A DNA stretch of 64,000 bases from Pseudobdellovibrionaceae bacterium (lineage in GTDB: Bacteria; Bdellovibrionota; Bdellovibrionia; Bdellovibrionales; UBA1609). Location of the stretch: contig CANEZP010000004.1 of the NCBI GenBank assembly GCA_947444305.1, forward strand, positions 186,001 through 250,000, written 5' to 3'. The position numbers and the translations under genes were made by a program. Positions 8,720 through 37,675 of the stretch are shown piece after piece (within the stretch, counting starts at the first letter, position 1; every line of letters begins with the position of its first letter). A model generated the notes under the pieces. That model did no database searches and was not told where the DNA came from. It saw only the letters and a list, made by a program, of their open reading frames with translations.

Positions 8720-9364
8720 CTACAAACACAATTTTTCGCAGGGAATCCCGTTCGCATTTCCATCGAGACGAGACTGGTTACATTGTGTGAAATATAGCTT
8801 GGCTTCGGCGCAGGTTTTGAATTGCTCGCAAGTTTTGTGAACTGAGCAATCAAGTTCGCCGGTTTGGGTACCTGGTGGGGCCTCGGCCACTTTCAAAGTG
8901 CTGGCCCACAATCCAGCTCGGTTCGAGCGTGCTTGCCATTCTAATTTTCTAAACTTTTCCAAGTGGCGAAATGGATATTTGGTGTAGGCAAATGCATAGC
9001 CCTTTTCTATTAGAGTCGAATTAACGAAAGTCCCATCAGGAAGATACAGATATCCGAGAGTGCGGTCATATCGATCTTTGCGTTGCTGGTCGTACTCGAT
9101 CCGTACACTTTTGCCGGAGATCAGCTTTACTAAAAACTCCGAAGCTTCCTTGCCAAAATATTGCACCGGCTTTCGGGGATCTTTGGTTTCCGGCGTATCG
9201 ACGCCTATCAGACGAACTTTCCCGATATCCTCAAGTACAACGGTGTCTCCATCCACAACCCGTTGCACTTTATAAAACTTCAAATCGGTGTCCTTACCAT
9301 TCGCTAAAGCGCCGCTCAGAACAAAAATCAGAATTCCGAGGAGCCAAAGTGAGGCTTTTCTCAT
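8720..9364 (-). CDS. Secreted SNase-type thermonuclease with Excalibur tail
   Basis: Starting at the ATG (MRKASLWLLG) gives a signal peptide ending at GALANG. The SNase core follows: VVDGDTVVL, VRLIGVDTPET (metal and catalytic Asp/Glu), and YDRTLGYLYLPDG (catalytic Arg). The C terminus, DCSVHKTCEQFKTCAEA...RLDGNANGIPCEKLC, is an Excalibur calcium-binding module with the D-N-NGIPCE pattern. Known members degrade DNA and RNA outside the cytoplasm. The start lies 2 bases after the stop of the PD-(D/E)XK gene, so it is the last gene of that operon, an unexpected place for an exported nuclease. Confidence 0.85.
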   Translation of the reverse strand: MRKASLWLLGILIFVLSGALANGKDTDLKFYKVQRVVDGDTVVLEDIGKVRLIGVDTPETKDPRKPVQYFGKEASEFLVKLISGKSVRIEYDQQRKDRYDRTLGYLYLPDGTFVNSTLIEKGYAFAYTKYPFRHLEKFRKLEWQARSNRAGLWASTLKVAEAPPGTQTGELDCSVHKTCEQFKTCAEAKLYFTQCNQSRLDGNANGIPCEKLCL

Positions 9365-9365
9365 A

Positions 9366-10121
9366 TCATCGCCCAACAGAAGATGCGGTTTGAAGGTACT
9401 GGCAAAAGTCGCAGTCTTTCCCATGGGCCGGGGCAATTTCTGAATTCAGGCAGCCATGAGCATCTCTAATCGTTTGCTCAACCCAGCTATCGTCAACAAC
9501 GGATGGCAATACTGAAATTTCAAATTCCAACTTGGAATCGAACATGTCCTTGTCCGTCAATCCATTGCAGTAAACGAAGTAGCCAGTGTCTGCCACCAAG
9601 AATCCATTTCGACGAAAGAGCCAGCCGTAGAAGGACATCTGGCGCTTGTAACCAATTTGCCAATCCTCATCGAGAGTGACCTTCGTTTTCTTTGACGTTG
9701 CTTTGTAGTCGACAATTATCAGCCGACCTAAAGAATCAATCCAAACGTCGTCAATTCCCCCTGAGACAATTAAACGAAGATCGTCGAGCGCGACGCTAAT
9801 ACCGCCGTGAAGTGCATCCCGCCATTCGTTAAGCTTCGAGTGTACAAACGGAATCGCATCAATTCCATCGCGCACGCAAACCGGGTGCGCTTCACCCTTT
9901 GCCCGGTAGAGATCGAATTCCTTCTTAAGCAAACTATCAACAGCACTATTTAAACTAAACGGATAACCAGGAGGCTGGCCGATTCCAAGCCTCCTGTCGA
10001 AGTAAAAGCACCGCGGGCAATTCACAAAGAGTTCGATCTTGGATCGACTCAATTTAAACGGTTTTTCGCTACCCGGAACGTATAAGTTCCGGGTTCTTTG
10101 TGGATTATAATATTTCGGCAT
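9366..10121 (-). CDS. PD-(D/E)XK nuclease, Cas4/RecB-like
   Basis: The 251-residue product (ATG at 10121, 4 bases after the upstream stop) has SRSKIELFVNCPRCFYFDR at the N terminus, the nuclease core GGIDDVW...LIIVDYKATS (Asp, then D-Y-K), a helix with QMSFYGWLF, and a C-terminal CDFCQY. The core and flanking Cys residues (CPRC and CDFC) match RecB/Cas4-like nucleases that often bind an iron-sulfur cluster. It belongs to the operon GHKL ATPase - GIY-YIG - this gene - SNase, so it is a candidate DNA-cutting subunit. Confidence 0.8.
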   Translation of the reverse strand: MPKYYNPQRTRNLYVPGSEKPFKLSRSKIELFVNCPRCFYFDRRLGIGQPPGYPFSLNSAVDSLLKKEFDLYRAKGEAHPVCVRDGIDAIPFVHSKLNEWRDALHGGISVALDDLRLIVSGGIDDVWIDSLGRLIIVDYKATSKKTKVTLDEDWQIGYKRQMSFYGWLFRRNGFLVADTGYFVYCNGLTDKDMFDSKLEFEISVLPSVVDDSWVEQTIRDAHGCLNSEIAPAHGKDCDFCQYLQTASSVGR

Positions 10122-10125
10122 CGCG

Positions 10126-10524
10126 TTACCGTTTGGCCTTGGCTTCACGCTCACGTACAAACTGGAAAAAATGTTTCGCAGTCGAACAGAACGGGCACTC
10201 CATGCCTGTCCCTTCAGGGGAACTAGGATGAATGCGATTTAGCATTATCGGCGAGCTCTTAAGTGCATGCCAAAGATAGCACTCTAAAAAGAAAGCCTCA
10301 GTTGCGTCGGGGCATGGCAGATGCACGAAATACTCACAATTTTCAGTATGATTGTGAGATCCGAGGCGCTTCTGCAAACACTTGTCCGACCTGCCGATGT
10401 ACGTGATTTCGAACGTATTTGTTTCAGGAGAACAATTCCCCAGGAGGTAAACCCCTGGGGAATCCTTAACTACAACGCCTCGAACCACTTCGGGCGTCAG
10501 CAAGATCGCGTTGTGGGTTTTCAT
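10126..10524 (-). CDS. GIY-YIG domain protein with zinc finger
   Basis: The 132-residue product shows GVYLLGN and then TYIGRSDKCLQKRLGSH, the two halves of a GIY-YIG nuclease core, with a possible catalytic Glu in ATEAFFLECYLW. A CPFC pair near residue 110 may bind zinc. Its start codon overlaps the GHKL ATPase stop (ATGA), so the two are translationally coupled. The first motif is GVY rather than GIY, which is common. A DNA-binding or nicking role is inferred. Confidence 0.75.
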   Translation of the reverse strand: MKTHNAILLTPEVVRGVVVKDSPGVYLLGNCSPETNTFEITYIGRSDKCLQKRLGSHNHTENCEYFVHLPCPDATEAFFLECYLWHALKSSPIMLNRIHPSSPEGTGMECPFCSTAKHFFQFVREREAKAKR

Positions 10525-12251
10525 TTCTTGGGCTCCAACTCTTCGATCATCCCTTGAAGGAAATTGCCCCAGTTGAGTCTTAGTTGTTCATGACACTTGA
10601 GGCAGGTTTCATCCCATCCCTCTGCCTTAGCGTAGGAAACGATCAGCAAATCCAACGCATTTTTGATCATCTTTAGTTCGTCCTGGGAAAGCTGCGTCGG
10701 TTCGTCCTTTGTGTCACCTAAATAGCCAGCTGCTCTGAGAACTGGTTGATAGACATGGGAAAAGAATGGGTGCGAGTGATTGAGACGGATCACAGCATTG
10801 CCGCGCCCCAAATGATCGATGGCTACGAATTCACGTCCGGGCCATGCAGCTCCGAGAATGGAGAATGGCTTTTGCTTGATTCTTTTCTTAACTTCCTCTT
10901 TGGACTTTAAACCTTCTGTAGAAGTCGCAACGACCTCTTTGGCCACGGCTTCGATGGTCGCTTCTACTTCCTTGTCAGTCATTTCACTCTTAGCATCGCC
11001 CTTGGGAGCCGTCTTTTCAAATTCCTCGGCCGCTTCTTCAGCGTCTCTGTGGACGCCTTCCTTGTCGACAGTCTCAACATCATTTTTTCTATGAAATTCC
11101 GTTACCTGTTTTCTGGCGTAGTCGACGGCCTTTCTGATTGCATTGCTGATGGCGTCCTTCACAGGTCCCTTCGGCTCAGCACCTCGTTTTACGTGCTTTA
11201 CCGCGAAATATTCGTCGAGGACGGCGTCGAAGGCAATTTCGACGCCAACGTACCTGTCGATGGTGCGATCGTATCCGATGCGAAAGCCCTTTGCGCCTTC
11301 GACAAAAATGAGCGGATCAAAGAAAATTTCCCGATTATTTCTTAATATTGATACGCCCATATTCTTATGAATCTTGCGCTTTTCAATTTCGGGATTTCTT
11401 GCGGCAGCTCCGTCACCGCTTTTCATTCTAAATTCTTCAGGTAACAATGTTACACGAACATCGATTTCGGATTCGACGCCAGATTCCGTTTTGAATGTTA
11501 CTGATTCCTCGTGAACCAGGGTGGCAGGCTTGTCCTTCGGAAATCTCTTGTTCGGCATGAGAAAGAGAGGGTCCCAAACACTTACGTCAATTCCATTGAT
11601 GGAAATTTTGAGGTTAGCCTCAATGAATTTACGGTAGGTACGTGCAACGTAAAATAAAACCTGATCTTGCAGGCTTTTCACTGAACGTTCACTCTTGTCG
11701 CCCTCTTTGAGTTCCAACTTGTCCCATATACAAACTGTTCCATGCTTCAAATGGTCGAGCTCTAACTCAGCCGGAAAATTGCTCTCGCTGGCAGGGATAA
11801 CGTCACGCTGGTCAGCCTTTAATTCATCGAGGTCGAGAAACGTGTGGAACACTTCAGAGTTTGCACGCTTGCTGTAATAGTCGATTCTTCGGGCTTGGCT
11901 AATGCCACCAAGTGGAGCACCGAGGCCGAAGCGGCCGATGCCCTTTCGGCTGTTGAAGCGAGTCGTCGATCCAAGCGCGATAACTTTGGGAAGGATCTGC
12001 TGAGTCATCCCTTCACCATCATCGATTACAATCACTCTCTGAATTTCGTTGGACTCCTTGCCGTTTCCAGCTTCAAGGATCACTTGAATGTGTTTTGCAC
12101 CGGCTTCCTGACTGTTGTCGATGATCTCGCCGAGCGCACTCAAAAATGAGTGACCCGAAGAACGAAGCGACTCCATCACGTGCTTCGTATCGAAAAGCGG
12201 AACTGCGTTTTCTGTATTGTGGGACTCTTGGTCCCGAAGACCTTTTTTCAC
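10521..12251 (-). CDS. GHKL (Bergerat-fold) ATPase
   Basis: The 576-residue protein starts at a GTG after GGGAG. Residues 25-120 carry the GHKL motifs: N box EIIDNSQEA (Asn46), G1 DDGEGM, and G2 GIGRFGLGAP. This resembles MORC/Hsp90-like ATPases found in defence loci. The C-terminal half has an acidic coiled region and a final domain with CLKCH. It heads a four-gene operon with two nucleases and an SNase. It is separated from the phosphorothioation operon by 239 bases without a gene (12252-12490), which probably hold its promoter. Such ATPases act as DNA clamps or switches; the role here is inferred. Confidence 0.8.
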   Translation of the reverse strand: MKKGLRDQESHNTENAVPLFDTKHVMESLRSSGHSFLSALGEIIDNSQEAGAKHIQVILEAGNGKESNEIQRVIVIDDGEGMTQQILPKVIALGSTTRFNSRKGIGRFGLGAPLGGISQARRIDYYSKRANSEVFHTFLDLDELKADQRDVIPASESNFPAELELDHLKHGTVCIWDKLELKEGDKSERSVKSLQDQVLFYVARTYRKFIEANLKISINGIDVSVWDPLFLMPNKRFPKDKPATLVHEESVTFKTESGVESEIDVRVTLLPEEFRMKSGDGAAARNPEIEKRKIHKNMGVSILRNNREIFFDPLIFVEGAKGFRIGYDRTIDRYVGVEIAFDAVLDEYFAVKHVKRGAEPKGPVKDAISNAIRKAVDYARKQVTEFHRKNDVETVDKEGVHRDAEEAAEEFEKTAPKGDAKSEMTDKEVEATIEAVAKEVVATSTEGLKSKEEVKKRIKQKPFSILGAAWPGREFVAIDHLGRGNAVIRLNHSHPFFSHVYQPVLRAAGYLGDTKDEPTQLSQDELKMIKNALDLLIVSYAKAEGWDETCLKCHEQLRLNWGNFLQGMIEELEPKK

Positions 12252-12490
12252 TGTTTTCTCCCGTTGTGGTGCCCTGCAAATGTCAAAGCACCGGGTTAAT
12301 AGTTAGTGCCCGAACGGTGAAAACAGATTTTTGATGGCAAAATAGGAATAGGAGAAAGAAACACAGGTGAGACAATTTTTATGCGACCTTCTCTTAACCC
12401 CAGATGCTTACGTCACCTGCGATCATACGATCGAACACATCCAATATAATACGGCGCGTCTACAAATTCAACGCTTTGCGCAACATTTTT

Positions 12491-13795
12491 TTAAATGTGA
12501 GGGTAACTGTCTGGATTAATGGTCTTTTTTGAGACAAATTTATTTGGGTCGAAACTGATTTGTTTTAATATAGCGGCCCAAGATTTCCTAAATCCAATGT
12601 CGGAACGGCTCAGCAGGCCCAAGCCCTCTTCGACCTCTGTAAGCTCCCTGAAGGCTTGATACTTAGGGTGGTCAGGCAGAACAAAACACTCTTTCCGGTG
12701 CAGAATCGGAGGGTTTTTCGAATTGGAATATGAACGGGTGCGAAGTGTTCGCTGTTCAAGGTCAACAAGCAGGGAAACCATTAGCTCGGGGTGCGGAACA
12801 TTCTCGAAATCACGGTAAATTAAGAGAGAAACGCCAGTTCCCGTTTTCGGAATCTTTACAATAAAATCCCCATCAATATTGTCGGCTATGGTGCGCGCGC
12901 ATGAAACCAAAGTTTGAATTTTAATGTCCATGGACCGAAGCGCAGAACAATGAAAGTAAAAGCTATCTGGAAGCATCTTTCCGCAGGGCGCACCTTTCAT
13001 TGATTCCATTCGAGCGGCACGATTAGTTAAACTCGCCAATAATTCATCAGCTGCATTGCACGCATTTTCAAATGAGCCAAAATATTCTTCACAACCTAAT
13101 AGCGAGACTCTGCTACTAGACAAAATATCAGATCGTCTAAATCTCTCGACAGCGAGAGATATTAAAACGTCGTCTCGACTAGAGTCATTCGAGCTCTTCA
13201 AACTTTTCAATTTTCGCACCGAGGGGAATTGCGACTTTCTTGAAAGGCGCGCAAGTGCATATCGCACACGTGCTTCTTCGCTTTTAAAAACGAAGAAAAT
13301 TCCTCGTTCGACCAAGAACGCTCGCGCTCCTGTTGAAGACTCAATTAATGATCGAAGCGCTTCATTTGCAAAATACTTCTGAAAGGTCTTTCTAGTGGTT
13401 AGGATACCGTCGTTATATGGAACACCTTTAGAGGGCTTCGTGGCTTCGGTTTGAGCTGAAACAATTAAGCACTCATTTGCAAGCGAGTAGGCGTATTTCA
13501 AAACCGAAACTCGCTCAGCTGGATCTTCGATTACGTTGATGACATAGCCAAGATTTACCACGTCAGAAGCCAGTCTTATTCCGTCTGCAAAATGATTGGG
13601 GTCCCAACCGACTGAATCGATACCAATGGAATTTAGAAGCGAAACGTCTCCGCCGCGTCCGCATCCATAATCCAGAACTGTCTTTTCCGAAGTTATTATT
13701 CTATCGCGAAGGGCGAGTTTGATTGGGCGAGAGAACGTAGGGCGGCCTATTGCGGTTTTTCCCCGGTATTGAAGCCGCTCTGTCGAAAAGTCCAT
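12491..13795 (-). CDS. DNA phosphorothioation-associated methyltransferase
   Basis: The 434-residue protein carries SAM-binding motif I, VLDYGCGRGGDVSLL (about residues 41-55), then GWDPNH and NVIEDP. The opening (QYRGKTAIGRPTFSRPIKLALRD) and overall length match the family annotated as phosphorothioation-associated putative methyltransferase. It starts 9 bases after sspD, making it the fifth gene of the ssp operon. Its substrate is not established. Confidence 0.8.
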   Translation of the reverse strand: MDFSTERLQYRGKTAIGRPTFSRPIKLALRDRIITSEKTVLDYGCGRGGDVSLLNSIGIDSVGWDPNHFADGIRLASDVVNLGYVINVIEDPAERVSVLKYAYSLANECLIVSAQTEATKPSKGVPYNDGILTTRKTFQKYFANEALRSLIESSTGARAFLVERGIFFVFKSEEARVRYALARLSRKSQFPSVRKLKSLKSSNDSSRDDVLISLAVERFRRSDILSSSRVSLLGCEEYFGSFENACNAADELLASLTNRAARMESMKGAPCGKMLPDSFYFHCSALRSMDIKIQTLVSCARTIADNIDGDFIVKIPKTGTGVSLLIYRDFENVPHPELMVSLLVDLEQRTLRTRSYSNSKNPPILHRKECFVLPDHPKYQAFRELTEVEEGLGLLSRSDIGFRKSWAAILKQISFDPNKFVSKKTINPDSYPHI

Positions 13796-13804
13796 CCATC
13801 TCTC

Positions 13805-14635
13805 TTATAGGTCACAGATAGTGCAGGCCCTCTCTGTTGAATCACTATCCACTGCGTTAGCGAAGGCTTCATGGATATTCTTTGGTTTCTGATTCCCTTC
13901 AAGTTTTTTCATCTTCTCGGCGTGTTTACGTTTGATTTCTTCTTTGTTCTGCCGCACCCAGTCAAGAGTTCTACCCTGAACCCAGGTGAACTTTACTTGG
14001 TCGCCCCGGTAACCCATTCGCTCGAATTCCTCAGCTTTCGCGAAGAGATCGGGATGGTTTTCCAGAAGACCGACCCACTCCACAGTTCTTTGGAAAAAGC
14101 AAAAATAGCAGCCCGATCTTGAACGCCATTCATAGTATTTGGGGAGTCCGAGTCCAGACTCTTCTAGGAGCTTGTAGACACCATTTCGATCTATTCCGTC
14201 CTCTTTAAATGGAAACTTTGCGGTGATGTTGGTCTTCGTTGTGACATAGCCTTGCCTGTTTTCATCGGCGCGAATGCCGACGTAGGAGACCACCTGTGAA
14301 TCACCAATGTAATCCTCATAGGGTTTGATTTTCATCTCGGCTGTACACCACCGAGCCCGCGGTGATGGGAGATAATTGGAATACTTATTCAAAAACTGCT
14401 CGAACGACTTATTGCTGTTTAGACGAACGATCGGTTTTCCAAGGTAAGCCTCAAGCCTATCAAGGTACTCGTAGGTCTCACGAAGTTCTGCGCCTGTATC
14501 GCAGAAAACGTATTCAATCATGGGAATCTTATCTTTTAGGTAAATCGCAAGTGCCGTTGAATCTTTGCCGCCGGACAATGCACAAATATGCCTTACGGAC
14601 GGATCTATATCTTTATATCCCATTGTTAACCCCAA
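13805..14635 (-). CDS. sspD: SspD-like ATP pyrophosphatase (PAPS reductase family)
   Basis: The P-loop-type motif ALSGGKDSTALA lies near residue 20, and FCDTGAELRETYEYLDRL follows, as in PAPS reductase/DndC-like enzymes. Several Cys (GCYFCFF, CTICDL at the C terminus) could bind a cluster or carry sulfur. In the family this enzyme activates the DNA backbone by ATP for sulfur insertion. It overlaps the ssp ATPase gene by 10 bases if the first ATG (14635) is used, or leaves a 2-base gap with the ATG at 14623. Order and neighbours match sspABCD rather than dndACDE. Confidence 0.85.
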   Translation of the reverse strand: MGLTMGYKDIDPSVRHICALSGGKDSTALAIYLKDKIPMIEYVFCDTGAELRETYEYLDRLEAYLGKPIVRLNSNKSFEQFLNKYSNYLPSPRARWCTAEMKIKPYEDYIGDSQVVSYVGIRADENRQGYVTTKTNITAKFPFKEDGIDRNGVYKLLEESGLGLPKYYEWRSRSGCYFCFFQRTVEWVGLLENHPDLFAKAEEFERMGYRGDQVKFTWVQGRTLDWVRQNKEEIKRKHAEKMKKLEGNQKPKNIHEAFANAVDSDSTERACTICDL

Positions 14636-17600
14636 TTCGCGCCAGGAAGTTCGTCGTCTTCACTAATCATTCTGCTTCGTACATTGTTAAGATCCATGAG
14701 CAAGTCGATAAGGACTTTGTTCATTTCAGCTTTCGTTAGATCACTGCTCAATCGCTTGAGTTCATCCGCGACAGCACTCATTGCGGGCGAAACCTCGGCC
14801 GAAGTTACGACCTCAGCAGTTAGTGGAGTGCCATCATCTTTTGATGACGTAAGGAATGTGCATTGCCTTCCGCCGTCTTCGGATAGGAACAAACCAATTT
14901 GAACTATTTCATTCGTGGCCTGATGAAGGTTGAGCTCAAACAAAGTTTTACCCTTTTCATCCCAGGTCCGTGGAGTCGCGCCAGTAATTGCATCCGCCAG
15001 TGTTTCGATTACACGCTGATTATCAGCAGTCGGCTCCAACTGTAGCGCCCTGTGAATGAGCCGGCCGGCAGCAGAATTGAACGCGAAACTCTTAAGATCT
15101 GCCGGAAGTATTGCCGCCAATTCACGCCACAAGCTTGCCAAGGGCGCTCTCGCCTCGGGTATTTCAATATCTGGCTTTCCAAATGCTCGGTAAAGACGAA
15201 GCAAAGCTTTTCGCTGGGATTTGGAAACACTGCGAAGAAGATCAGCGTACATCTTATGCAATTGATCGAGGTCCGCACCCAATTCGGTGTGCAAGCTCTC
15301 GCCCTGGCTATCTGAAAGATTCTTCCACACGTCATTGCAGTAAATTTCTGGAATGGTGGTCAGAAAGAACTGTTCCGGCTGCTTGAATGAATCGAGACTT
15401 GCAACGAGCCGACGCTGCCTCGTTGAGAGCTGTGATGACCGGCGAGAATATTCGGGAATCGCACTGTAAAACTGCGAATAGTATTTTGCTACCGATACAA
15501 ACTCTGCATCTCGCTCTGAAGAAGCTCCACCGAGGTACGCCCTGGGAATTGCAATTAACTTTTTCAAGTAAGTCGCCAGTTTCGGCGTCATTTCCACCAT
15601 CTGGACAGAATACCGCTTGGGCTGCTTCACGATACTTTCAAACAGCTCCACGTCCAAAGTCGCCAAGAATGTGTCTTCGTGATAAAAGCTAAGGGGTGTT
15701 TTGCCAGCCTTTGACAATAAAAATAAGTACAGCGATGCAAGACCAATCCTAATGCCGAAGGGAGGCGCTACCCAACGAGAAAGGACGTCAGCTAGAACAA
15801 CGGGTCCATTCGCGCTCTTCAATTGCTCGTGAAAGCCCTTAAGGAGCGGCGCAAGGGCGCTAGTCGGTGCGATCTCGATACGCTCAACGTTTCCAGATTC
15901 ATTTTTAACAAACCGGATTTTGTTGTCCGCCATTAGACTCTTTAAAATTGAGAGTTCGGGGCCATAGCCTTCGATTCCCCAATTTTTGGTATCACTCTTG
16001 TCAACGGCCGCCATCAAACGCATTCGCCCTTGAATGATCGGGGTTGAAACCTTTCGCTTGTTAATCATTTCATTATTGAAAATGGGATAACTTGAAAAAA
16101 CCTCGTCCATGACAGAAGAAGCAAATTCAGAAATTTCAAATTCACATTGAATCGCTTTGCGATGCTGTTTGCCGCCGCAGAACAAAGTCGCATTCATGTT
16201 ATTATATGATTTCAGGATTTCGCAGGAGCGATAGATCGCCTTGCGAGAAATCTTCTGATATTGATCCAACTCCTTGCGTACATTCAGTCCCGAAGATAAT
16301 AGCTCTTTCTTCGAGTACAGTCTTTCAATTGCGTTCAGCTCCAATAAGTCCGATTCGATATCTAATGGCTTATTGGGCACCACAAAAATCGTGGATAAGG
16401 AGGTTTCCTTTTTCAGAATCTCCTTTGCTCTTTCAATGTCAGCTTTAGAGAATGCGGCGACAAATACGACTTTGCCGTCCTCTTTAGAATAGTCCACTTC
16501 TCCGAACGAGCGAGATTCAAGATCGTCAGCTGAAACTAGCTGCTCGGTCAGAAATCTCGTGATCCGCTTTGAAAAGTTATATTTCTTCGGTACTACAAAC
16601 TTCAACCCCAAATTGGAACGCAGAATTTCTACATAGGCCTGAGGAGTAAGTTTTTTTGCCCGCAACTTCTGTATCTCGGAGCGGATATCTACCGACGCGC
16701 CTTCAAAGAGCGAATATTCGTCATTTGTTCTGTCAAAGACGATCATGCGGCGAGCATTAAGGTCGTCCAGCTTTGACCCAATTTCCGAGGGGCTGTATAA
16801 TCCATCGAGCAGTCCCACGAGCGACTTCTTGGTCGCCTTTATCACTGAGCGATTATTAATAATCGCAATTGATGAAAGTGAACAAACCAGGTCTCGTCCC
16901 AAGCGATCTTCGCGCTCCAGGGAGTTAAGTAATTGCTCCGCGACGATGTTAATTCTCGAAGCACCTCCAACCCCTAGATCATTGGCAAACAACGGTCGGA
17001 AGTATGAGTAAAGCGTCTCGGGCCGAAGCATTTCCATCTCATTCACAGTCGCGAATGAGAGCAAATGCGCGGGCAATGAGTAATCTTCGTTTCGGGTTAG
17101 AAAGGAAAACATTGTGCGCTCATTCTGAGCTACTCGTTCAGCGAGAAGCGGAAGAATAGCAACGACAGACGGATGCAAGGGATAGCAAGCGACCAACGTA
17201 TCGACAAGCTCAGGAGTTGACAGCAGAGTGGGCAAGCACCCGGCGCGTTTAATCCCTTGGACCCAAGCTTCGGCGTTCTTAGCATACGACTTTGCAACTT
17301 TTGGATTTAAATCCGCGATTCCATACTCAAAAACATTTGCGATTAATGTGTAAGTAGAGGCCTGGTGATCGTTAAAACTCAGCTGTGAAAATCGTCCTTC
17401 AATTTTTGCCCATTCCTGTTGCACAGAACTTGGCAAGCTAGCCGCATACCTGGAAATCGGCAAATGGCTCAGCAGCAACAAATGAAGTTGCTTTGAACCA
17501 CTCGCATTACAAGCTTCTGCAAACTCTTGAAGGAAATGTAGATCAAACGTTGAGGGATGCCGAACTCCTCTCTCGAGAAATTTTCCGAATTCGTCATAGA

Positions 17601-18357
17601 CAACTATTAGCCCGGTAAATCCCTTTTTCGATAGTGCCTGCGCTACATACTTGTACTGACCGACGACACCGGTCTTCGACTGCACATGCCCAGCACCGCC
17701 AGTGATTTCAGCGTATGAATCGGCAAAAAGCTTCAATGCGGTACGCTTTCCACGCTTCAATTCGGCGTGAAATTCCTTAAACGGCATTACCTTCCCAACA
17801 AGGGCCGACATTTCTTTCAATCTTTTGGGATATGATTTTTCCCAAGCTTTGATGACTTCAAGACTGGCTTTCGCGTCAACGACACTCATTTCCCGAGCTA
17901 AATCTGCAAGACCAGCACCCTTGAGCGCTTCAACCAAGGCAGCTGCGAATGCATCCTCGATTTGGCCTTCATCTCCGCTTAAAAATACGGGCAGCAGTTT
18001 GGAACCTTCGACCTGAGCGACTGTGTTTTTAAAATCGACCCCGAGCGCTTTGTTTCCATTCACACTCTTTAGAAGCTTCGCGCGGTTTGTCGCAGAAAGA
18101 AATCGCGTAAGAAATAAGGCAAACGTCGATTTTCCTACTCCCGGCGTTCCTGAAATCACATGGACCCGCGATTTAGAATCAGTGTTAGTAACTTCTTTCG
18201 CGAGCTTAACGAAATGCTTTTGAAATTTTTCCGAGATGATTAAGTGATCGAGCGAGTTCTGCTCCTCAAAATCGATTTTTAAATTCGTGGAGCGCGCAAA
18301 GCCGCTTTTAAGGCGAATACCGATCCCATTTGATTTTGTCACCACTCGCTTACGCAT
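14626..18357 (-). CDS. sspC: SspC-like large P-loop ATPase of phosphorothioation
   Basis: The 1243-residue protein has one clear Walker A motif, ISGTPGVGKSTFALFL (about residues 68-83), and a Walker B-like LIVVYDEFGKFLERG. The remainder is long and helical with no other domain I recognise. It lies between the DUF4007 gene and the ATP pyrophosphatase gene, overlapping both, the position of sspC. In the system this ATPase supports single-strand phosphorothioate insertion together with SspB and SspD. Full length, no frameshift. Confidence 0.85.
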   Translation of the reverse strand: MRKRVVTKSNGIGIRLKSGFARSTNLKIDFEEQNSLDHLIISEKFQKHFVKLAKEVTNTDSKSRVHVISGTPGVGKSTFALFLTRFLSATNRAKLLKSVNGNKALGVDFKNTVAQVEGSKLLPVFLSGDEGQIEDAFAAALVEALKGAGLADLAREMSVVDAKASLEVIKAWEKSYPKRLKEMSALVGKVMPFKEFHAELKRGKRTALKLFADSYAEITGGAGHVQSKTGVVGQYKYVAQALSKKGFTGLIVVYDEFGKFLERGVRHPSTFDLHFLQEFAEACNASGSKQLHLLLLSHLPISRYAASLPSSVQQEWAKIEGRFSQLSFNDHQASTYTLIANVFEYGIADLNPKVAKSYAKNAEAWVQGIKRAGCLPTLLSTPELVDTLVACYPLHPSVVAILPLLAERVAQNERTMFSFLTRNEDYSLPAHLLSFATVNEMEMLRPETLYSYFRPLFANDLGVGGASRINIVAEQLLNSLEREDRLGRDLVCSLSSIAIINNRSVIKATKKSLVGLLDGLYSPSEIGSKLDDLNARRMIVFDRTNDEYSLFEGASVDIRSEIQKLRAKKLTPQAYVEILRSNLGLKFVVPKKYNFSKRITRFLTEQLVSADDLESRSFGEVDYSKEDGKVVFVAAFSKADIERAKEILKKETSLSTIFVVPNKPLDIESDLLELNAIERLYSKKELLSSGLNVRKELDQYQKISRKAIYRSCEILKSYNNMNATLFCGGKQHRKAIQCEFEISEFASSVMDEVFSSYPIFNNEMINKRKVSTPIIQGRMRLMAAVDKSDTKNWGIEGYGPELSILKSLMADNKIRFVKNESGNVERIEIAPTSALAPLLKGFHEQLKSANGPVVLADVLSRWVAPPFGIRIGLASLYLFLLSKAGKTPLSFYHEDTFLATLDVELFESIVKQPKRYSVQMVEMTPKLATYLKKLIAIPRAYLGGASSERDAEFVSVAKYYSQFYSAIPEYSRRSSQLSTRQRRLVASLDSFKQPEQFFLTTIPEIYCNDVWKNLSDSQGESLHTELGADLDQLHKMYADLLRSVSKSQRKALLRLYRAFGKPDIEIPEARAPLASLWRELAAILPADLKSFAFNSAAGRLIHRALQLEPTADNQRVIETLADAITGATPRTWDEKGKTLFELNLHQATNEIVQIGLFLSEDGGRQCTFLTSSKDDGTPLTAEVVTSAEVSPAMSAVADELKRLSSDLTKAEMNKVLIDLLMDLNNVRSRMISEDDELPGANWG

Positions 18358-19216
18358 GTGAATCTCCGTAGTAGTCTTTCAGTAGTGCTTGAGTTTCAGC
18401 TGACCGTACTTTCACTGTGAAAAAGCCGCCTGATTTTTTATATGAGAACCACTTCGGGTATTTTTCTACCAATCGATTTAAGATTTCCAAATTGGCTTCT
18501 TGGTCCAAATTCAGGACCTTTCCCGGCGAACAATCTTTTGACTGGAGCTCCTCAAATCGGAATTCAGCCGGCTCACCAATCGTGCGCCAAAATTCAATCA
18601 AAATTACTCCAAATACTGGGATAGGAATCGAATCTACTGCGGGCTTCAGGAGCCTAAAGCCCGAGTCGTGCTTTTCAAGGAGATGTAGAATCGCCAAAGG
18701 AGATGCGTAGGAATTCTCCGGAGTTTCAGACTTATCTTCGTCGGAGAAAAGATATGTACGAATGAAGGTGTTCAAGTCCCGCCCGAGGGTATTTGAATTT
18801 ACCTTTCGACCAGCAGAACTAATATACCGAGTCAAAAGCTGCTGCGCGGACTCTAGCGAAAACTCACTGACGCCAAATTTATTGAAAAACCAGAACCATG
18901 TAGAAGCATATTCTTCGTTCGAGGCAAGCTTGTAGTGAATCAACCATGCTGTGCCCATTCTCTCGAAATACGGATCATACTTCGAGAGCATTAAAGCTAG
19001 ACTTGTGAGCTTAAGTCCCTTCGTCGCATTTGGATCTACAAATCCAACGGCTTCAAGCCAGAATTTGATTGATGAAACCATGTTTGAACCAACACCGAGA
19101 CTTTGCATCGCCTTTTCAGTGTTGGCAAAAATGTCACCCTCATTTTTAAGAAGGTCGATTCCTTTATGTAGCCAGCTGTCCCGTAGATGGAACGTCTGAT
19201 GTCCTCCGAAGCGCAT
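18350..19216 (-). CDS. sspB: SspB-like DUF4007 protein
   Basis: The 288-residue product begins MRFGGHQTFHLRDSWLHKGI, the signature of DUF4007, and continues with SLGVGSNMVSSIKFWLEAVG and GTAWLIHYKLA. In described systems SspB nicks DNA before sulfur is inserted. It starts 18 bases after sspA and overlaps sspC by 8 bases, so the operon is tightly coupled. The assignment rests on the domain plus gene order. Confidence 0.82.
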   Translation of the reverse strand: MRFGGHQTFHLRDSWLHKGIDLLKNEGDIFANTEKAMQSLGVGSNMVSSIKFWLEAVGFVDPNATKGLKLTSLALMLSKYDPYFERMGTAWLIHYKLASNEEYASTWFWFFNKFGVSEFSLESAQQLLTRYISSAGRKVNSNTLGRDLNTFIRTYLFSDEDKSETPENSYASPLAILHLLEKHDSGFRLLKPAVDSIPIPVFGVILIEFWRTIGEPAEFRFEELQSKDCSPGKVLNLDQEANLEILNRLVEKYPKWFSYKKSGGFFTVKVRSAETQALLKDYYGDSHA

Positions 19217-19234
19217 CCATGCCCCCTATTAATC

Positions 19235-20422
19235 CTAAGTAACTTCTAAGCCGCCAACGCGTTCATGATTTTTTGCTGGAACAGTTTGATGATTCGATCC
19301 AGTCAGAAATTCCTGAATTGCCGAGACAACAATTTTGATCTGTTCAATTGTGCTATCAGGACCCAATGAGAATCTCACGCAAGAGCGTGCATATTCTTTG
19401 TCAAAACCCAACGACGTGATTACATGACTAGGCTCAATGGCGCCGGATGTACAAGCCGAGCCATTTGATGCACTAATTCCCTTTCGGGAAAGGAAAAAGA
19501 GCAACTCCTGTGATTCGCGGCCGCCGAAATAAATGTTTGAAGTATTAGCGGCTCGTGGACATCCCAATCCATTAATTCGCATGGCTGGATCAATCCTTGT
19601 CAACTCTGCCTCTAGTTCATCACGAAGGCGGCTGGTGACCTTCAGGCGGGCAAAATCAACATTTTCGACTGCAAGTTCAAGTGAACGGACCCCTGGGAGG
19701 TTTGCTGTACCGGCGCGAAACCCGTTTTCCTGTTTTCCGCCAACTATCAGTGGCGAAGGCGTGTCTTGCGCCACCAGCATTCCGATACCCTTTAGACTGC
19801 CGATTTTGTGACCGGAGAAACTAACGTAGGCTGCGCCGACGTCCGACAAACTGAATTGAACTTTCCCAAGCGCCTGGCTCCCATCTATATGAAATAGTGA
19901 TTGGGCCGAAGCGACCATTCGCTGAATCTCAAAGACATCATTAATGACGCCGGTCTCATTGTTGACGTACATGAGAGAAACTAGGGACCGCTTTCCAGCT
20001 AGTTTAGATTCCAAAGCCGAAAGGTCTAACTGTCCGCGCGAGTTAGCTCCGATCCAAACTACGGGTGTCCCGCATTCTTCAAGACGACCCAAACATGCTA
20101 GCGTTGCGGAATGCTCTTGTTGGGAAGAGATAACCTGCTCAATTCCTAAGGCCTTAATATTCGAAGGGTGAAGTATCGTGTTGATAGACTCAGTGGCACC
20201 ACTGGTAAATGATAGTGCCTTTGGATTGCAGTCGACAAATTCTGCGATCCTAGCCCGAGCGATGCTTAATTTAGATGCAGCTTCGAGACCCAGCTCATGC
20301 GGCGAAGCTGCGTTTGCCCAATCAGTTTGAATTTCCGCGCTCAGATAATTCCGAACCTTCGGAGAAAATGGAGCTGTGGAATTGTAATCTAGGTAAATCA
20401 CACTCTTAGGGTAGGCGAGCAA
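19235..20422 (-). CDS. sspA: Cysteine desulfurase SspA/DndA
   Basis: The 395-residue PLP enzyme shows TSGATES, the PLP-stacking His104 (QQEHSA), DGSQALGK, the PLP-binding Lys206 in SFSGHKIG, RAGTAN and the catalytic Cys324 in NGSACTSG. It supplies sulfur from cysteine to the phosphorothioation machinery. The start may be the TTG at 20422 or the GTG at 20401, which gives the familiar IYLDYNST opening directly; neither has a strong ribosome site. It is the first gene of the ssp operon and is divergent from the dndB-like gene. Confidence 0.88.
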   Translation of the reverse strand: MLAYPKSVIYLDYNSTAPFSPKVRNYLSAEIQTDWANAASPHELGLEAASKLSIARARIAEFVDCNPKALSFTSGATESINTILHPSNIKALGIEQVISSQQEHSATLACLGRLEECGTPVVWIGANSRGQLDLSALESKLAGKRSLVSLMYVNNETGVINDVFEIQRMVASAQSLFHIDGSQALGKVQFSLSDVGAAYVSFSGHKIGSLKGIGMLVAQDTPSPLIVGGKQENGFRAGTANLPGVRSLELAVENVDFARLKVTSRLRDELEAELTRIDPAMRINGLGCPRAANTSNIYFGGRESQELLFFLSRKGISASNGSACTSGAIEPSHVITSLGFDKEYARSCVRFSLGPDSTIEQIKIVVSAIQEFLTGSNHQTVPAKNHERVGGLEVT

Positions 20423-20674
20423 TGAGCCCGGAACAACCCGGCCTAGACCATATTTGACTAAAAAATAGACACGGGACCAGGCCGAAACTGCCCTCCAACT
20501 TTTCCCGGAAAATTTCCTGAAATCAATTAGTTACAGTATATCCAAAAGCCCTCACCAGACAGTCGCATCTCGCGTCTCGGGTCCTGTTTGCGTAAACATT
20601 TTGAGAAGACATGCAAACAGTTTGGATCTGATCGAGTAAACTTTGAAAAGGTTCAGAACACGGAGGCATTGTTC
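20423..20674. promoter_or_regulatory. Divergent control region between sspA and dndB
   Basis: 252 bases separate the two divergent genes and must hold both promoters. DndB-type proteins are known to repress phosphorothioation operons, so operators are expected here. I see no perfect palindrome; a CGGAGG ribosome site at 20661-20666 serves dndB. Confidence 0.5.
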
Positions 20675-21991
20675 ATGACTGTCATCCCCTGCATAAGAGG
20701 CAAGATAGGTAACACTACCTACTATCAAGGGAAGATGCTAGCTACCGAGCTCGCGTCCCAGGTTTCTCCGGCTTACAAAATGGAAGATTGGTCTAACGAC
20801 AGCATTGAAGAGCGCTATCAGCGCGAGCCGAACCAAAAACGAATTCTTGAGGAAATCGCCCCATACCTAGCAAACAATGAAGATCGGTTCTTTGGTTCTC
20901 TAATTGTGCTCGTAAAAGGCAGTCTTGATTTCGAACCGCTGGCAGAATTTAGTGGTAAAACTCCGAAGGCTTATGCAAATGCCGCGAAGGATCTCGGATT
21001 TTTAACCCTGGGGCAATGCCAGCTCGTGGCTCTAGACGGTCAACATAGATTGATTGGGATTCAGCACGTTGTAACAAAGAATGTGACGGGTCCTTTCTCA
21101 TCTGACGTTCATAAGGACGAGGTTGTCGTCATTTTTATAGAACATCAAGACCTTCAAAAAACGCGCAACATTTTTAACAAAGTTAATAGATATGCCCGAT
21201 CGACAAATCGTGGTGAAAATATCATCACGAGCGAAGATGACATCTGCTCAATCATCGCGCGAATGCTAATGAGGGAGGGTGCACCACTCGGTATAAAGCT
21301 TCCTGTCGATGGCGCTCGCACCAAAACTAGCAATTCGGAATCTAACGAAACGGAGAAGAAACAAGCGCTTTTGGCTGCGTGGAAACACAACACGCTCTCT
21401 GCAAGAAGCCCAGAGCTAACGACCATGAGCGTTCTTTATGACTCTTCGATGGCAATTCTTTCTAAGAAATCGCCTGCCGTTTTGGAGAAAAGCTATCTTC
21501 AGCAACGGCCAGTGGAGGAAGAAATTAATAAATCCTATAGAGAGGTTGAAACCGTTTGGAAAGCTGTGCTTTCTGGCGTCACGGCATACAAAGTGGCGAT
21601 CAATGATTTGAAATCAATCCCTAAAATGCGGGCCGACACCGCGCCAAGTTCACTATTGTTCCGTCCCTATACTCAAACAATTCTGTTCCAGGCCCTATCA
21701 TGTGCAACCTTCGTCAAAGGAGTCCCACCGCGGACTGCTATTGATCGAATCAATAAGGTGAAATGGAGCATGAACGATGAGTTTTGGCAGGATATTTTGA
21801 TTATAAATAAGAAGATGAATACGACTAAAGAAGGTCGTGAACTGGCTGCTCGCACTCTAACGTATCTTTTGGCCTCTGATAAAATGGACAAAGCAGAAAT
21901 CAAAAAGGCCAAGGAAGATTATTCTCATTCGCGAGGGAAAAAAGGCAAGCCTCTAAGTCCGCTTCCGGGAGTTCGAGAAACAAACCTGTAA
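20675..21991 (+). CDS. dndB: DndB-like DGQHR-domain protein
   Basis: The ATG at 20675 follows CGGAGG at good spacing and yields a 438-residue protein; an upstream TTG would add 29 residues without a site. Key motif: LVALDGQHRLIGIQHV (Asp121), the DGQHR signature of DndB, followed by FNKVNRYARSTNRGENI. In known systems DndB regulates phosphorothioation genes by binding their promoter. It lies divergent from sspA, as expected for a regulator. A hairpin terminator follows. Confidence 0.85.
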   Translation: MTVIPCIRGKIGNTTYYQGKMLATELASQVSPAYKMEDWSNDSIEERYQREPNQKRILEEIAPYLANNEDRFFGSLIVLVKGSLDFEPLAEFSGKTPKAYANAAKDLGFLTLGQCQLVALDGQHRLIGIQHVVTKNVTGPFSSDVHKDEVVVIFIEHQDLQKTRNIFNKVNRYARSTNRGENIITSEDDICSIIARMLMREGAPLGIKLPVDGARTKTSNSESNETEKKQALLAAWKHNTLSARSPELTTMSVLYDSSMAILSKKSPAVLEKSYLQQRPVEEEINKSYREVETVWKAVLSGVTAYKVAINDLKSIPKMRADTAPSSLLFRPYTQTILFQALSCATFVKGVPPRTAIDRINKVKWSMNDEFWQDILIINKKMNTTKEGRELAARTLTYLLASDKMDKAEIKKAKEDYSHSRGKKGKPLSPLPGVRETNL

Positions 21992-29454: not shown

Positions 29455-30771
29455 TTATTCGCCTTCCAATGCGCCAATGCGGCGACGGCGCGGTGAGGCC
29501 TTAGGGGCGTTACGTTCGCCGTCTGGCTCAACAAATTGTCGCACCTCTTCTTCCCCTATCTTCATCCAGCTCTGCTGGGCGCCCTCTTCTATCAGGTGAT
29601 GCGCAAGTTCGAGCATTGGCCCGGCACGGCCCGCCCTCTCCTCCAAAATAACCCGAATCGCAGCCCGATTGAACGGATGAAGTGAGTCAAATGCGGTCCC
29701 CTTTCGACGAAACTTACCCAGATAAGATTCGAACAATTTCTCGGCGTCCTCGACGTTCTTTATGGCCCTAAGAACAACAGTAATTCGCTCGCTCTGTTTC
29801 ATTAGATGGTCGATTTTAGGCAGTCGCGCTAAGGACCAGTACTCCTCGATCGCTCTAGCCGCCGCCGGATGCATGGTGAGAACGAAGCTGGTCATGTCGC
29901 CAAAGGGCTGCGTTTCAATCGCGATGTCGCGAAAGCGCTCAACTTCAAGAGCGCGCCTTTTCTTTGGGGTATCCGCGCTGGCAAAATCCTCGACTTGATC
30001 GATGAAGAGTAACGCGCGCTTGACTCCGGCAGCACGTGCGATCACCAAAACGCTGCTGAGTAGATTAAATCCGTCTTTCGCTTTGGATTCACGAAGATGA
30101 CCAGTCAGCCCACGCCAGTTTCCAGTTGCAAAATGGTCCAGTAAAATTCGATCTGGTGAACCCAGAGTTTTGCCGGCCAAACTGAGACTTGTATCTTTGA
30201 CCCGGTCCTTGATTACACCAGCTACTGCGGCACCCATGTCGTCTTCATCATCAGCGGGGAGTTCATCACCCGATTGGTCAAGGAAACGCTCACGCACTAG
30301 CATTAATGGGGATACTCCGGATTTTGCATCGGGCTGTGCTAGGTAGCGAACTTGCTCCAGGCAAACAGCGGCCAAAGTTGTTACGTCATTTGTATTAAAT
30401 GTTCCCATGGCCGCGATTACAGGAGTGGCCTTAGCCTCTTTCTCGTCGAACTCGTTCGCTAACAGCGTGGACAAACCAAGATCGCCATTGAGGATGCGCG
30501 CGAGATAGCGCAACAATGATGTTTTACCATAGCCGCGAGCTTCATCACCATCTCCCAAAGACCAAAGGAATTGAAACTTACTTCCAGAGTCGATCGGACC
30601 CACCACGAATTTAGAAATCGCATCGCTATAGCCGTCCGGACCAACCTCCGAGTTATAAAGGGAGCCATTCTCACGCTCGTCGCTGCTTCCCCACTGTATA
30701 ATCGCCGTTGCAGGAAATGCATTTTGTTCCAATCCGTAATTGGTCCGAATAAAAGTTATTGACCGCGCCAC
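29455..30771 (-). CDS. P-loop ATPase B of five-gene operon
   Basis: The 438-residue protein has Walker A LWSLGDGDEARGYGKTSLL (about residues 69-87) and Walker B RALLFIDQVEDFAS. Further on are FVLTMHPAAARAIEEYW (a sensor-like strand) and LHPFNRAAIRVILEERAGRAGPMLELAHHL. The gene at 31981 encodes a paralog sharing all four blocks. It starts 2 bases after the stop of the winged-helix-like gene. It is a STAND/AAA-like ATPase by appearance. Using a pair of related ATPases hints at a heteromeric ring or clamp. Confidence 0.75.
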   Translation of the reverse strand: MARSITFIRTNYGLEQNAFPATAIIQWGSSDERENGSLYNSEVGPDGYSDAISKFVVGPIDSGSKFQFLWSLGDGDEARGYGKTSLLRYLARILNGDLGLSTLLANEFDEKEAKATPVIAAMGTFNTNDVTTLAAVCLEQVRYLAQPDAKSGVSPLMLVRERFLDQSGDELPADDEDDMGAAVAGVIKDRVKDTSLSLAGKTLGSPDRILLDHFATGNWRGLTGHLRESKAKDGFNLLSSVLVIARAAGVKRALLFIDQVEDFASADTPKKRRALEVERFRDIAIETQPFGDMTSFVLTMHPAAARAIEEYWSLARLPKIDHLMKQSERITVVLRAIKNVEDAEKLFESYLGKFRRKGTAFDSLHPFNRAAIRVILEERAGRAGPMLELAHHLIEEGAQQSWMKIGEEEVRQFVEPDGERNAPKASPRRRRIGALEGE

Positions 30772-35576: not shown

Positions 35577-35948
35577 CTAGCCCCTTTCTCGAAGTTGATC
35601 GATTCCAGAAAGAATCTCTAACGGACGTCGCTTCACTCGAGCGATGTTCTCAGCCAAGCTCATTATAAATGCATCATCATCACTGACATCGATAACAAGC
35701 GCAGGAATTTTAGGTTCTCCAAGAGCCTTAAAGGCTTTTAGTCGTCCCTCTCCGCATACCAACAGATAGCGTTCGGTATTGTCTGATCCGTTGCGTGGCG
35801 TAACAGTGATTGGTTTTTTCAATCCTATGGCTTTAATATTGCCTACAACCTCCTCAAAAATTTTATTATTGCGCTCGCGAGGATTTAGGACGTCGATTAG
35901 CTCCACGGCAATCATCCGAATCTCACTATTCTTGCCCCCGTGATTCAT
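35577..35948 (-). pseudogene. ParB N-terminal domain protein, truncated
   Basis: The 123-residue frame carries a ParB/RepB N-terminal domain: IAVELIDVLNPRERN, NIKAIGLKKPITVTPR, LVCGEGRLKAFKALGEPKIPALVIDV, MSLAENIARVKRRPLEILSGIDQLRERG. Full members continue here into a helix-turn-helix (about 150 more residues), but a TAG stops it exactly at that point. It starts overlapping the recombinase stop (ATGA), as in intact recombinase-RepB modules. Confidence 0.75.
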
Positions 35949-37504: not shown

Positions 37505-37675
37505 TCTTCGATCCCCATAAGTCATTCTGTGCAGTCACTCGAAATCCTGGTTGCGTACTAAATGTCACTTATACTTTCATAAGCAATTTGAATACGAAGT
37601 TCATACATTGAGCTACGCGCGCGAACCCGAGAGAAATTCAGACGGACCCTATCACTTGGAAGAGCATGTGCGCCA

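What the first reader, a model, noticed from the sequence alone, without database searches (positions are those of the whole stretch)
8720..12251. GHKL ATPase, GIY-YIG and PD-(D/E)XK nucleases next to the ssp operon: candidate alternative restriction arm
Known partners of SspABCD are SspE or SspFGH. No SspE-like DUF262/HNH protein is visible. Instead a coupled operon encodes a GHKL ATPase and two different nuclease folds. Position and direction suggest it reads the sulfur mark. It could be a new effector type, or I may be failing to recognise SspFGH.
Basis: inference. Interest (0 to 1): 0.72.

Follow-up and report, generated by a model that had tools for sequence, protein, structure and literature searches.

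The report
MORC-like ATPase partner of sulfur-marking genes
Next to genes that mark DNA with sulfur (Ssp), this bacterium carries a tight operon of a MORC-like ATPase and three nucleases; relatives of the ATPase with other nucleases sit beside sulfur-marking genes in many phyla, so this looks like an undescribed cutting arm of sulfur-based phage defence.

Summary
Catalytic motifs are intact. It is not SspFGH or SspE: PADLOC holds models for all four and none matches; SspE and genuine SspH are absent from the genome. The ATPase has a MORC/MutL-like core and an unmatched C-terminal domain. A genome scan chosen on the ATPase alone gave 27 good loci; 19 carry PT genes in cis, and the other eight genomes have them in trans. 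Controls: in one actinobacterial order, 8 of 8 genomes with the window-type ATPase have DndC (base rate 18/250); in one cyanobacterial order, 11 of 11 with the sister type have SspB nearby (39/149). The trans DndC link in cyanobacteria is uninformative (DndC in 121/149). Conserved cassettes are HTH-GIY-GHKL (dnd, sometimes ssp) and SF2 helicase-GHKL-PLD (ssp, sometimes dnd). PD-(D/E)XK and SNase look like local additions. No held paper describes it. That it reads the sulfur mark, or restricts phage, is inferred, not shown.

The parts
10521..12251 (-). GHKL (MORC/MutL-type) ATPase, 576 aa, GTG start; core of the module; C-terminal domain (about residues 440-576) without a confident known fold
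   Evidence: Pfam HATPase_c_3; intact N/G1/G2/G3 motifs in 27-row alignment; AF2 model pLDDT 81, best structural neighbours SMCHD1, MORC2/3/4, MutL
10126..10524 (-). GIY-YIG nuclease, 132 aa, with conserved C-terminal HP..P...CPFC tail
   Evidence: family alignment with 9 relatives, all adjacent to GHKL; UvrC GIY-YIG match
9366..10121 (-). PD-(D/E)XK Cas4/RecB-like nuclease, 251 aa, start at ATG 10121; CPRC and CDFC pairs, GGIDDVW...IVDYK motif
   Evidence: PDDEXK_1; Cas4 profiles; start supported by 56% identical full-length relative
8720..9364 (-). staphylococcal-nuclease homologue with N-terminal hydrophobic signal and Excalibur domain; last gene of the operon
   Evidence: SNase 9.7e-30, Excalibur 5.9e-7; catalytic D, R, E, R retained in alignment to solved staphylococcal nuclease chains
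12443..12471 (-). promoter-like site between the methyltransferase and the GHKL gene (9 of 12 matches; such sites also arise by chance)
12491..13795 (-). DNA phosphorothioation-associated putative methyltransferase (TIGR04096)
   Evidence: 349 bits, cut-off 150
13805..14635 (-). SspD (PAPS-reductase-like)
   Evidence: PADLOC SspD 4.2e-108
14626..18357 (-). SspC (ATPase)
   Evidence: PADLOC SspC 1.8e-145
18350..19216 (-). SspB (DUF4007)
   Evidence: DUF4007 5.8e-71, SspB 3.2e-64
19235..20422 (-). SspA/DndA-type cysteine desulfurase
   Evidence: PADLOC SspA 1.1e-93
20588..21991 (+). DndB/DGQHR-domain protein, divergent from sspA
   Evidence: Pfam DndB 1.4e-27, DGQHR 112 bits

Best explanation
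The operon is a phosphorothioation-coupled effector (restriction) arm built around a GHKL ATPase. Proposed mechanism: the GHKL protein dimerises in an ATP-gated way on DNA, as MORC and MutL do, forming a clamp whose conformation depends on whether the DNA or the Ssp complex on it carries the sulfur mark. On improperly marked (phage) DNA the clamp recruits or activates the small GIY-YIG nuclease to nick. In this strain the Cas4-like PD-(D/E)XK enzyme and a probably exported thermonuclease are further nuclease outputs added to the operon. Shown by sequence: the genes, their coupling, intact ATPase and nuclease motifs, absence of SspE and SspFGH, and statistical and physical linkage of this ATPase family to PT modification genes. 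Inferred: that it is anti-phage, that the ATPase is a DNA clamp, that the PT state is the switch, and the division of labour among nucleases.
For: Operon and motifs. MORC/MutL core: VIA Z 23-19 over residues 1-388; MORC2 sequence-profile match 3e-10. Linkage: of 27 good loci from a scan that did not look at neighbours (L046 set aside), 19 carry PT genes in cis; of the other 8, 7 genomes have DndC and one has SspB. Controls with base rates: actinobacterial order, 8/8 window-type GHKL genomes have DndC against 18/250, P=1.3e-10, six in cis; Nostoc-group order, 11/11 sister-type GHKL genomes have SspB on the same contig 6-18 kb away against 39/149, P=1e-7. Plasmids: ten fetched sister-type loci all lie beside ssp genes. 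Window's own phylum: G118 has PLD-helicase-GHKL-sspBCD-methyltransferase (L089). GIY-YIG is next to GHKL at 15 other loci.
Against: No experiment exists. No known PT-reading domain was identified. In cyanobacteria the window-type ATPase lies away from PT genes, and DndC is so common there (121/149) that co-occurrence says nothing. Two of 14 actinobacterial GHKL genomes, both divergent members, have no PT gene, and relatives L013 and L014 have none nearby. The PD-(D/E)XK and SNase genes are not conserved with GHKL, so parts of this operon may be unrelated cargo. Hypergeometric tests ignore shared descent.
Confidence: 0.6

Rival explanations
1. Backup or suicide effector: the GHKL-nuclease operon senses failure or inhibition of the Ssp machinery, or phage takeover, and destroys host and phage DNA indiscriminately, rather than discriminating marked from unmarked DNA.
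For: Rakesh et al. 2024 (PMC10853773) propose this role for standalone URI/GIY-YIG nucleases at the edges of dnd loci. The window operon lies at the edge of the ssp cluster with its own 239-nt upstream gap and a promoter-like site. The operon carries several nuclease folds, one apparently exported.
Against: In actinobacteria the HTH-GIY-GHKL cassette usually follows dndE in the same direction (L078-L080), and in ssp plasmids helicase-GHKL-PLD directly follows sspD (L047, L048), as expected of a main effector. A dedicated ATPase clamp is more than a suicide nuclease would need.
Confidence: 0.2
2. PT housekeeping: the module repairs, removes or regulates PT marks (for example by processing nicks left by SspB) and is not an effector.
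For: MutL-like ATPases and UvrC-like GIY-YIG enzymes act in DNA repair; fold and profile matches to MutL and UvrC. Linkage to both ssp and dnd fits a general PT function.
Against: The partner nuclease fold differs between lineages (GIY-YIG against PLD plus SF2 helicase), as expected of defence effectors rather than of a repair step. Most PT systems lack the module (10 of 18 DndC genomes in one order lack it).
Confidence: 0.1
3. Independent defence system that merely shares islands with PT genes.
For: The window is a mobile island with serine recombinases and other defence-like genes. PD-(D/E)XK's closest relative belongs to a Gabija-type locus, so at least that gene moves among systems. Some divergent GHKL genes have no PT genes nearby (L013, L014, L081, L086).
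Against: Association with specific PT partners is far above base rate and at short, conserved distances in unrelated phyla.
Confidence: 0.1

Closest known systems
SspABCD-SspFGH (PMC8092258)
   Same: Three-gene cassette adjacent to sspBCD in genomes without SspE; an ATPase is involved; proposed restriction arm.
   Different: SspF is a Walker-A protein and SspH has an FtsK/SpoIIIE-like C-terminus. None of the window proteins matches SspF, SspG or SspH by PADLOC profile or phmmer.
SspABCD-SspE
   Same: Uses SspABCD modification; an NTPase is coupled to a nuclease.
   Different: SspE is a single DUF262-type protein; no SspE profile match anywhere in this genome.
DndCDEA-PbeABCD (PMC6459918)
   Same: PT-linked effector with SF2 helicase and PLD nuclease; the helicases of the GHKL sister cassettes are homologous to PbeA's helicase (hhalign E=8e-31).
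   Different: Pbe uses a PLD-helicase fusion plus SMC-like PbeC; no GHKL. Both modules coexist at L020, L024, L032, L035 and L040, so they are distinct.
Prokaryotic MORC and paraMORC ATPases in restriction-modification operons (Iyer et al. 2008, PMC2292703)
   Same: GHKL plus S5 ATPases encoded with SF2 helicases and diverse nucleases beside DNA-modification genes; proposed to loop DNA between mark and cleavage site.
   Different: Those operons use methyltransferases; association with PT genes is not reported in the parts read. The MORC-specific S5 motif is nearly but not fully matched.
MZA system, MzaB
   Same: Closest named profile for the ATPase: same GHKL type.
   Different: 78.7 bits against an equivalog cut-off of 850; no MZA partner genes in the operon.
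URI/GIY-YIG and HKD nucleases of dnd neighbourhoods (Rakesh et al. 2024, PMC10853773)
   Same: Reports GIY-YIG (URI) and HKD/PLD-helicase nucleases in dnd neighbourhoods.
   Different: Text does not mention MutL, gyrase, Hsp90 or HATPase and treats the GIY-YIG as a standalone backup effector; the constant ATPase partner is not described.

Membership tests
SspABCD modification system | SspA, SspB (DUF4007), SspC and SspD in one cluster | tested here: met
SspFGH | Homologues of SspF, SspG, SspH | tested here: not met
   No PADLOC hit for the operon proteins; the library does hold SspF/G/H models; phmmer of the operon and other island proteins against SspF/G/H of L095 and SspG/H of L096 gives nothing at E<10. 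The only SspH hit in the genome is to the FtsK part, in an 828-aa ORF, with a profile that also rings in E. coli and other controls
SspE | SspE profile (DUF262-type) match | tested here: not met
   0 matches in the whole genome; no hit for the operon
DndFGH/DptFGH | DndF, DndG, DndH homologues | tested here: inconclusive
   No hit in PADLOC or NCBIfam, but presence of those models in the libraries was not checked
PbeABCD | PbeA PLD-helicase fusion and PbeC SMC-like ATPase | tested here: not met
   No Pbe hit among the ten genes 8720-21991; the library does contain PbeA and PbeC
MORC family | GhXhhpXXRhl motif in the S5 domain (Iyer 2008) | tested here: not met
   Window has GVSILRNNREI: 10 of 11 positions fit, but the second-last is Glu, invariant in the 27-row alignment
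MORC family | GHKL plus S5 fold closest to MORC ATPases | tested here: met
   SMCHD1, MORC3, MORC4, MORC2 lead (Z 23-21, about 300-320 residues, rmsd 4-4.7), with MutL, topo VI and Hsp90 close behind (Z 19-20)
paraMORC1-5 | Membership in one of the five named GHKL families | not testable with these tools
   Alignments of those families are in figures that are not held
MzaB (MZA system) | NCBIfam equivalog score of 850 bits | tested here: not met
   78.7 bits
GIY-YIG nuclease | GVY...YIG with catalytic Arg, Glu, Asn | tested here: met
   Y26, Y42, G44, R53, E81, N96 invariant in 10 sequences
Cas4 | NCBIfam Cas4 equivalog cut-off of 65 bits | tested here: not met
   33.4 bits; it is PD-(D/E)XK_1 superfamily

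The most novel reading that the evidence does not exclude
MORC-like GHKL ATPases are a general, previously unrecognised class of PT-coupled effector used by both Ssp and Dnd systems in many phyla. They work with exchangeable nucleases (GIY-YIG, or SF2 helicase plus PLD; perhaps also the dual-GHKL proteins of Acinetobacter and Ensifer ssp loci) and account for a good part of the ssp and dnd clusters that have lacked a restriction partner.
Probability: 0.55. Interest if true: 0.83.

Novelty: new variant of a known kind. Interest (0 to 1): 0.74.

Why it matters
Wang et al. 2021 (PMC8092258) found no SspE or SspFGH beside most of 2,678 sspBCD clusters and asked whether other restriction partners exist; a 2025 Acinetobacter study (PMC12421847) met the same gap. 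Here one ATPase family, with two main cassette types, is linked to 28% of SspB genomes in one cyanobacterial order (11/39), 36% in one actinobacterial order (4/11) and 44% of DndC genomes in the latter (8/18). This gives a concrete, clonable answer to test. It would also extend the MORC/MutL way of controlling nucleases from methylation-based restriction to marks in the DNA backbone.

Tried and rejected
SspFGH, SspE, Pbe and MZA membership (see membership table). Trans co-occurrence of window-type GHKL with DndC in cyanobacteria was first taken as support and then rejected: DndC is in 121 of 149 genomes of that order (6/6 gives P=0.28). PD-(D/E)XK as part of the conserved core: rejected, since it was not found at other GHKL loci and its closest relative follows GajA/GajB. 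[quoted passage not shown] Foldseek found nothing at E<0.001, and VIA gave at most Z 3.7, led by Hsp90 C-terminal domains: a weak lead only. The PDB sequence search found nothing for the PD-(D/E)XK. Direct repeats for island ends: none informative. Closest same-order relatives gave only weak GHKL hits. L046 was dropped as a 65-residue match. L040's ATPase looks frameshifted and was left out of the family profile used for the later gene maps.
Full report
What is there. The span 8720-12251 on the minus strand holds four genes, not three. In order of transcription: a 576-aa GHKL ATPase (HATPase_c_3, E=7.4e-18), a 132-aa GIY-YIG protein, a 251-aa PD-(D/E)XK protein (PDDEXK_1, E=1.6e-14) and a 214-aa staphylococcal-nuclease homologue with a hydrophobic N-terminal signal and an Excalibur domain. 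Spacing is -4, +4 and +1 nt, so they are read as one operon. It follows, on the same strand and after 239 nt, a TIGR04096 phosphorothioation-associated methyltransferase and sspD, sspC, sspB and sspA, with a divergent DndB/DGQHR gene beyond. A promoter-like site lies in the 239-nt gap, but such sites also arise by chance.

The enzymes look active. In the 27-row ATPase alignment the N-box (GE.IDN), G1 (DDG.GM or DNG.G), G2 (GIGRFG.G) and SGT motifs are kept in all rows but L040, which looks frameshifted. The GIY-YIG residues are invariant in ten sequences. The SNase keeps its Asp, Arg, Glu and Arg positions against solved chains. The PD-(D/E)XK keeps GGIDD...VDYK and two Cys pairs.

Not a known partner. 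PADLOC has models for SspE, SspF, SspG and SspH, and none matches the operon proteins. phmmer of the operon and other island proteins against SspE, SspF, SspG and SspH taken from annotated plasmids gives nothing at E<10. SspE is absent from the genome; the SspH model rings only through its FtsK part in an 828-aa ORF, as it does in E. coli and other control genomes. The nearest named profile is MzaB, far below its cut-off (78.7 of 850 bits).

Fold. The AF2 model (pLDDT 81) matches SMCHD1, MORC3, MORC4, MORC2, topo VI-B and MutL over residues 1-388 (VIA Z 23-19; Foldseek best MORC2; profile search best MORC2, 3e-10). The S5-domain signature of true MORCs is met at 10 of 11 positions, with an invariant Glu at the odd one. 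So it is MORC-like, not a MORC by that definition. The C-terminal domain has no confident match. It is shared with a small PC4-domain protein that follows the ATPase in a sister cassette (hhalign E=1.6e-14; PC4).

Co-occurrence. A scan of genome contigs with a three-sequence ATPase alignment, blind to neighbours, gave 28 loci; one (L046) is a weak 65-residue match and is set aside. Of the 27, 19 have PT genes in the flanking 10 kb; one of these, L038, shows only a cysteine desulfurase before its contig ends. Of the 8 without, 7 genomes carry DndC and one carries SspB.

Base rates. In an actinobacterial order (250 genomes), DndC is in 18 and DUF4007/SspB in 11. All 8 genomes with a window-type ATPase (over 600 bits) have DndC (hypergeometric P=1.3e-10), six of them within about 8 kb. 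Of 6 genomes with a divergent ATPase, 4 have SspB within about 12 kb (P=3e-5) and 2 have no PT gene. In the order of Nostoc (149 genomes), 11 genomes have the sister-type ATPase and all 11 have SspB on the same contig 6-18 kb away, against 39 of 149 overall (P=1e-7). For the window-type ATPase in that order the test fails: 6 of 6 have DndC, but so do 121 of 149 genomes (P=0.28). These tests ignore shared descent.

Cassettes. The tree and gene maps show three groups. (a) Window type: small HTH protein, GIY-YIG, GHKL, mostly with dnd in actinobacteria (L020, L032, L043, L076-L080) and sometimes with ssp (L023 in cis, L027 in trans). (b) GHKL, PC4/C-terminal-domain protein, SF2 helicase and PLD nuclease, with ssp (L010, L022, L024, L037, L041) or dnd (L028, L036); L031 and L034 carry helicase and PLD with ssp. 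(c) SF2 helicase, GHKL, PLD nuclease with ssp, on plasmids and chromosomes of Alphaproteobacteria, Bacteroidota, Spirochaetota, cyanobacteria and actinobacteria (L047-L050, L053-L057, L082-L085; in L052 no PLD was detected), and in the window's own phylum (L089). The window's ATPase branches at the base of (a) (support 94/90), in keeping with its GIY-YIG partner. The window is unusual in gene order (GHKL before GIY-YIG), in lacking the HTH gene, and in the added PD-(D/E)XK and SNase. The PD-(D/E)XK's closest relative (56% identity) follows GajA- and GajB-like genes in a viral-collection contig, so it appears to be an accessory that moves among defence operons.

Literature. PMC8092258 reports 2,678 sspBCD clusters, most without SspE or SspFGH, and raises the possibility of further restriction partners. 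PMC10853773 lists GIY-YIG (URI) and HKD-helicase nucleases near dnd but has no MutL, gyrase, Hsp90 or HATPase mention, and was not returned by the search for phosphorothioation with GHKL. PMC12839542 has no GHKL or MORC mention. PMC2292703 describes MORC and paraMORC ATPases in methylation-based restriction operons and proposes a DNA-looping mechanism; it is the nearest concept. Searches for phosphorothioation with GHKL, MORC, MutL or GIY-YIG found no description of this module in the held library. Subscription papers and preprints are not held, so prior description elsewhere cannot be excluded.

Mechanism. Shown: genes, coupling, intact motifs, absence of known partners, linkage of the ATPase family to PT systems. 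Inferred: an ATP-gated clamp controls a GIY-YIG nickase according to the PT state, as MutL controls MutH or its own nuclease according to methylation and mismatch (general knowledge). Whether PT activates (as reported for SspE) or protects cannot be told from sequence. Because the same ATPase family serves both ssp and dnd, a reader of the sulfur itself, or of the PT-making complex, seems more likely than a reader of one sequence motif; this is inference.

Verdict. New variant of a known kind (PT-based defence), with an effector class not described in the literature available here.

Noticed in passing
L092:17049-21303, L093:17245-21620, L094:17052-21430: ssp loci of Acinetobacter baumannii, Ensifer and Polaromonas plasmids carry another GHKL protein of about 780 aa (N-terminal HATPase_c_3 and C-terminal HATPase_c by Pfam in the two tested) plus a 637-680 aa partner; no Ssp, Dnd or Pbe PADLOC match. 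PMC12421847 called it a two-component histidine kinase and noted the missing nuclease; it may be a second GHKL-type ssp effector.
   Followed up: partly
L011:13414 (545 aa), L012:14603-16267: The two window-type GHKL genes with no cis ssp/dnd (Vibrio, Photobacterium plasmids) each have a divergent DndC-like PAPS-reductase protein about 1-1.5 kb downstream (TIGR03183 86 bits in L012, below cut-off): perhaps an unknown sulfur-based system.
   Followed up: partly
L091:803-5762: In an IMG/VR contig, GajA-like and GajB-like genes (Gabija) are followed directly by a 56%-identical relative of the window's PD-(D/E)XK: a nuclease add-on shared by unrelated defence operons.
   Followed up: partly
window:28962-33974 (minus strand): Compact operon with two related P-loop proteins sharing a GDGDEARGYGKT-type Walker A (29455-30771 and 31981-33156), further genes between and after them, and a 273-aa protein; no PADLOC and no meaningful Pfam or NCBIfam match. 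Possible unknown defence system.
   Followed up: no
window:23472-26381 (plus strand): Double-AAA ATPase with similarity to anti-phage IetA/IteA and a 212-aa partner; a homologue lies near the ssp/GHKL locus of Nitrincola (L024:1541-3613).
   Followed up: no
window:5782-7903: Serine recombinase whose 3' end overlaps a tRNA-Met gene: probable integration site of the island; further recombinases at 35945-37525 and 39034-39639. No matching right-end repeat was found.
   Followed up: partly
order of Nostoc: DndC is present in 121 of 149 genomes of this cyanobacterial order, far above the 18 of 250 in an actinobacterial order: PT, or a DndC paralogue with another role, looks nearly universal there.
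   Followed up: no
L010:13677-14309, L022:11687-12310, L041:9080-9682: Small PC4-domain protein whose C-terminal half is homologous to the GHKL protein's C-terminal domain: duplicated domain shared between ATPase and partner.
   Followed up: partly
window:1213-2640: Protein that reads like a Hint/intein-type autoprocessing domain (CYAGDQRLLTS ... LTTNHPL); not tested.
   Followed up: no
window:45357-46280: ORF that reads like a bacterial Ku (NHEJ) protein; not tested.
   Followed up: no
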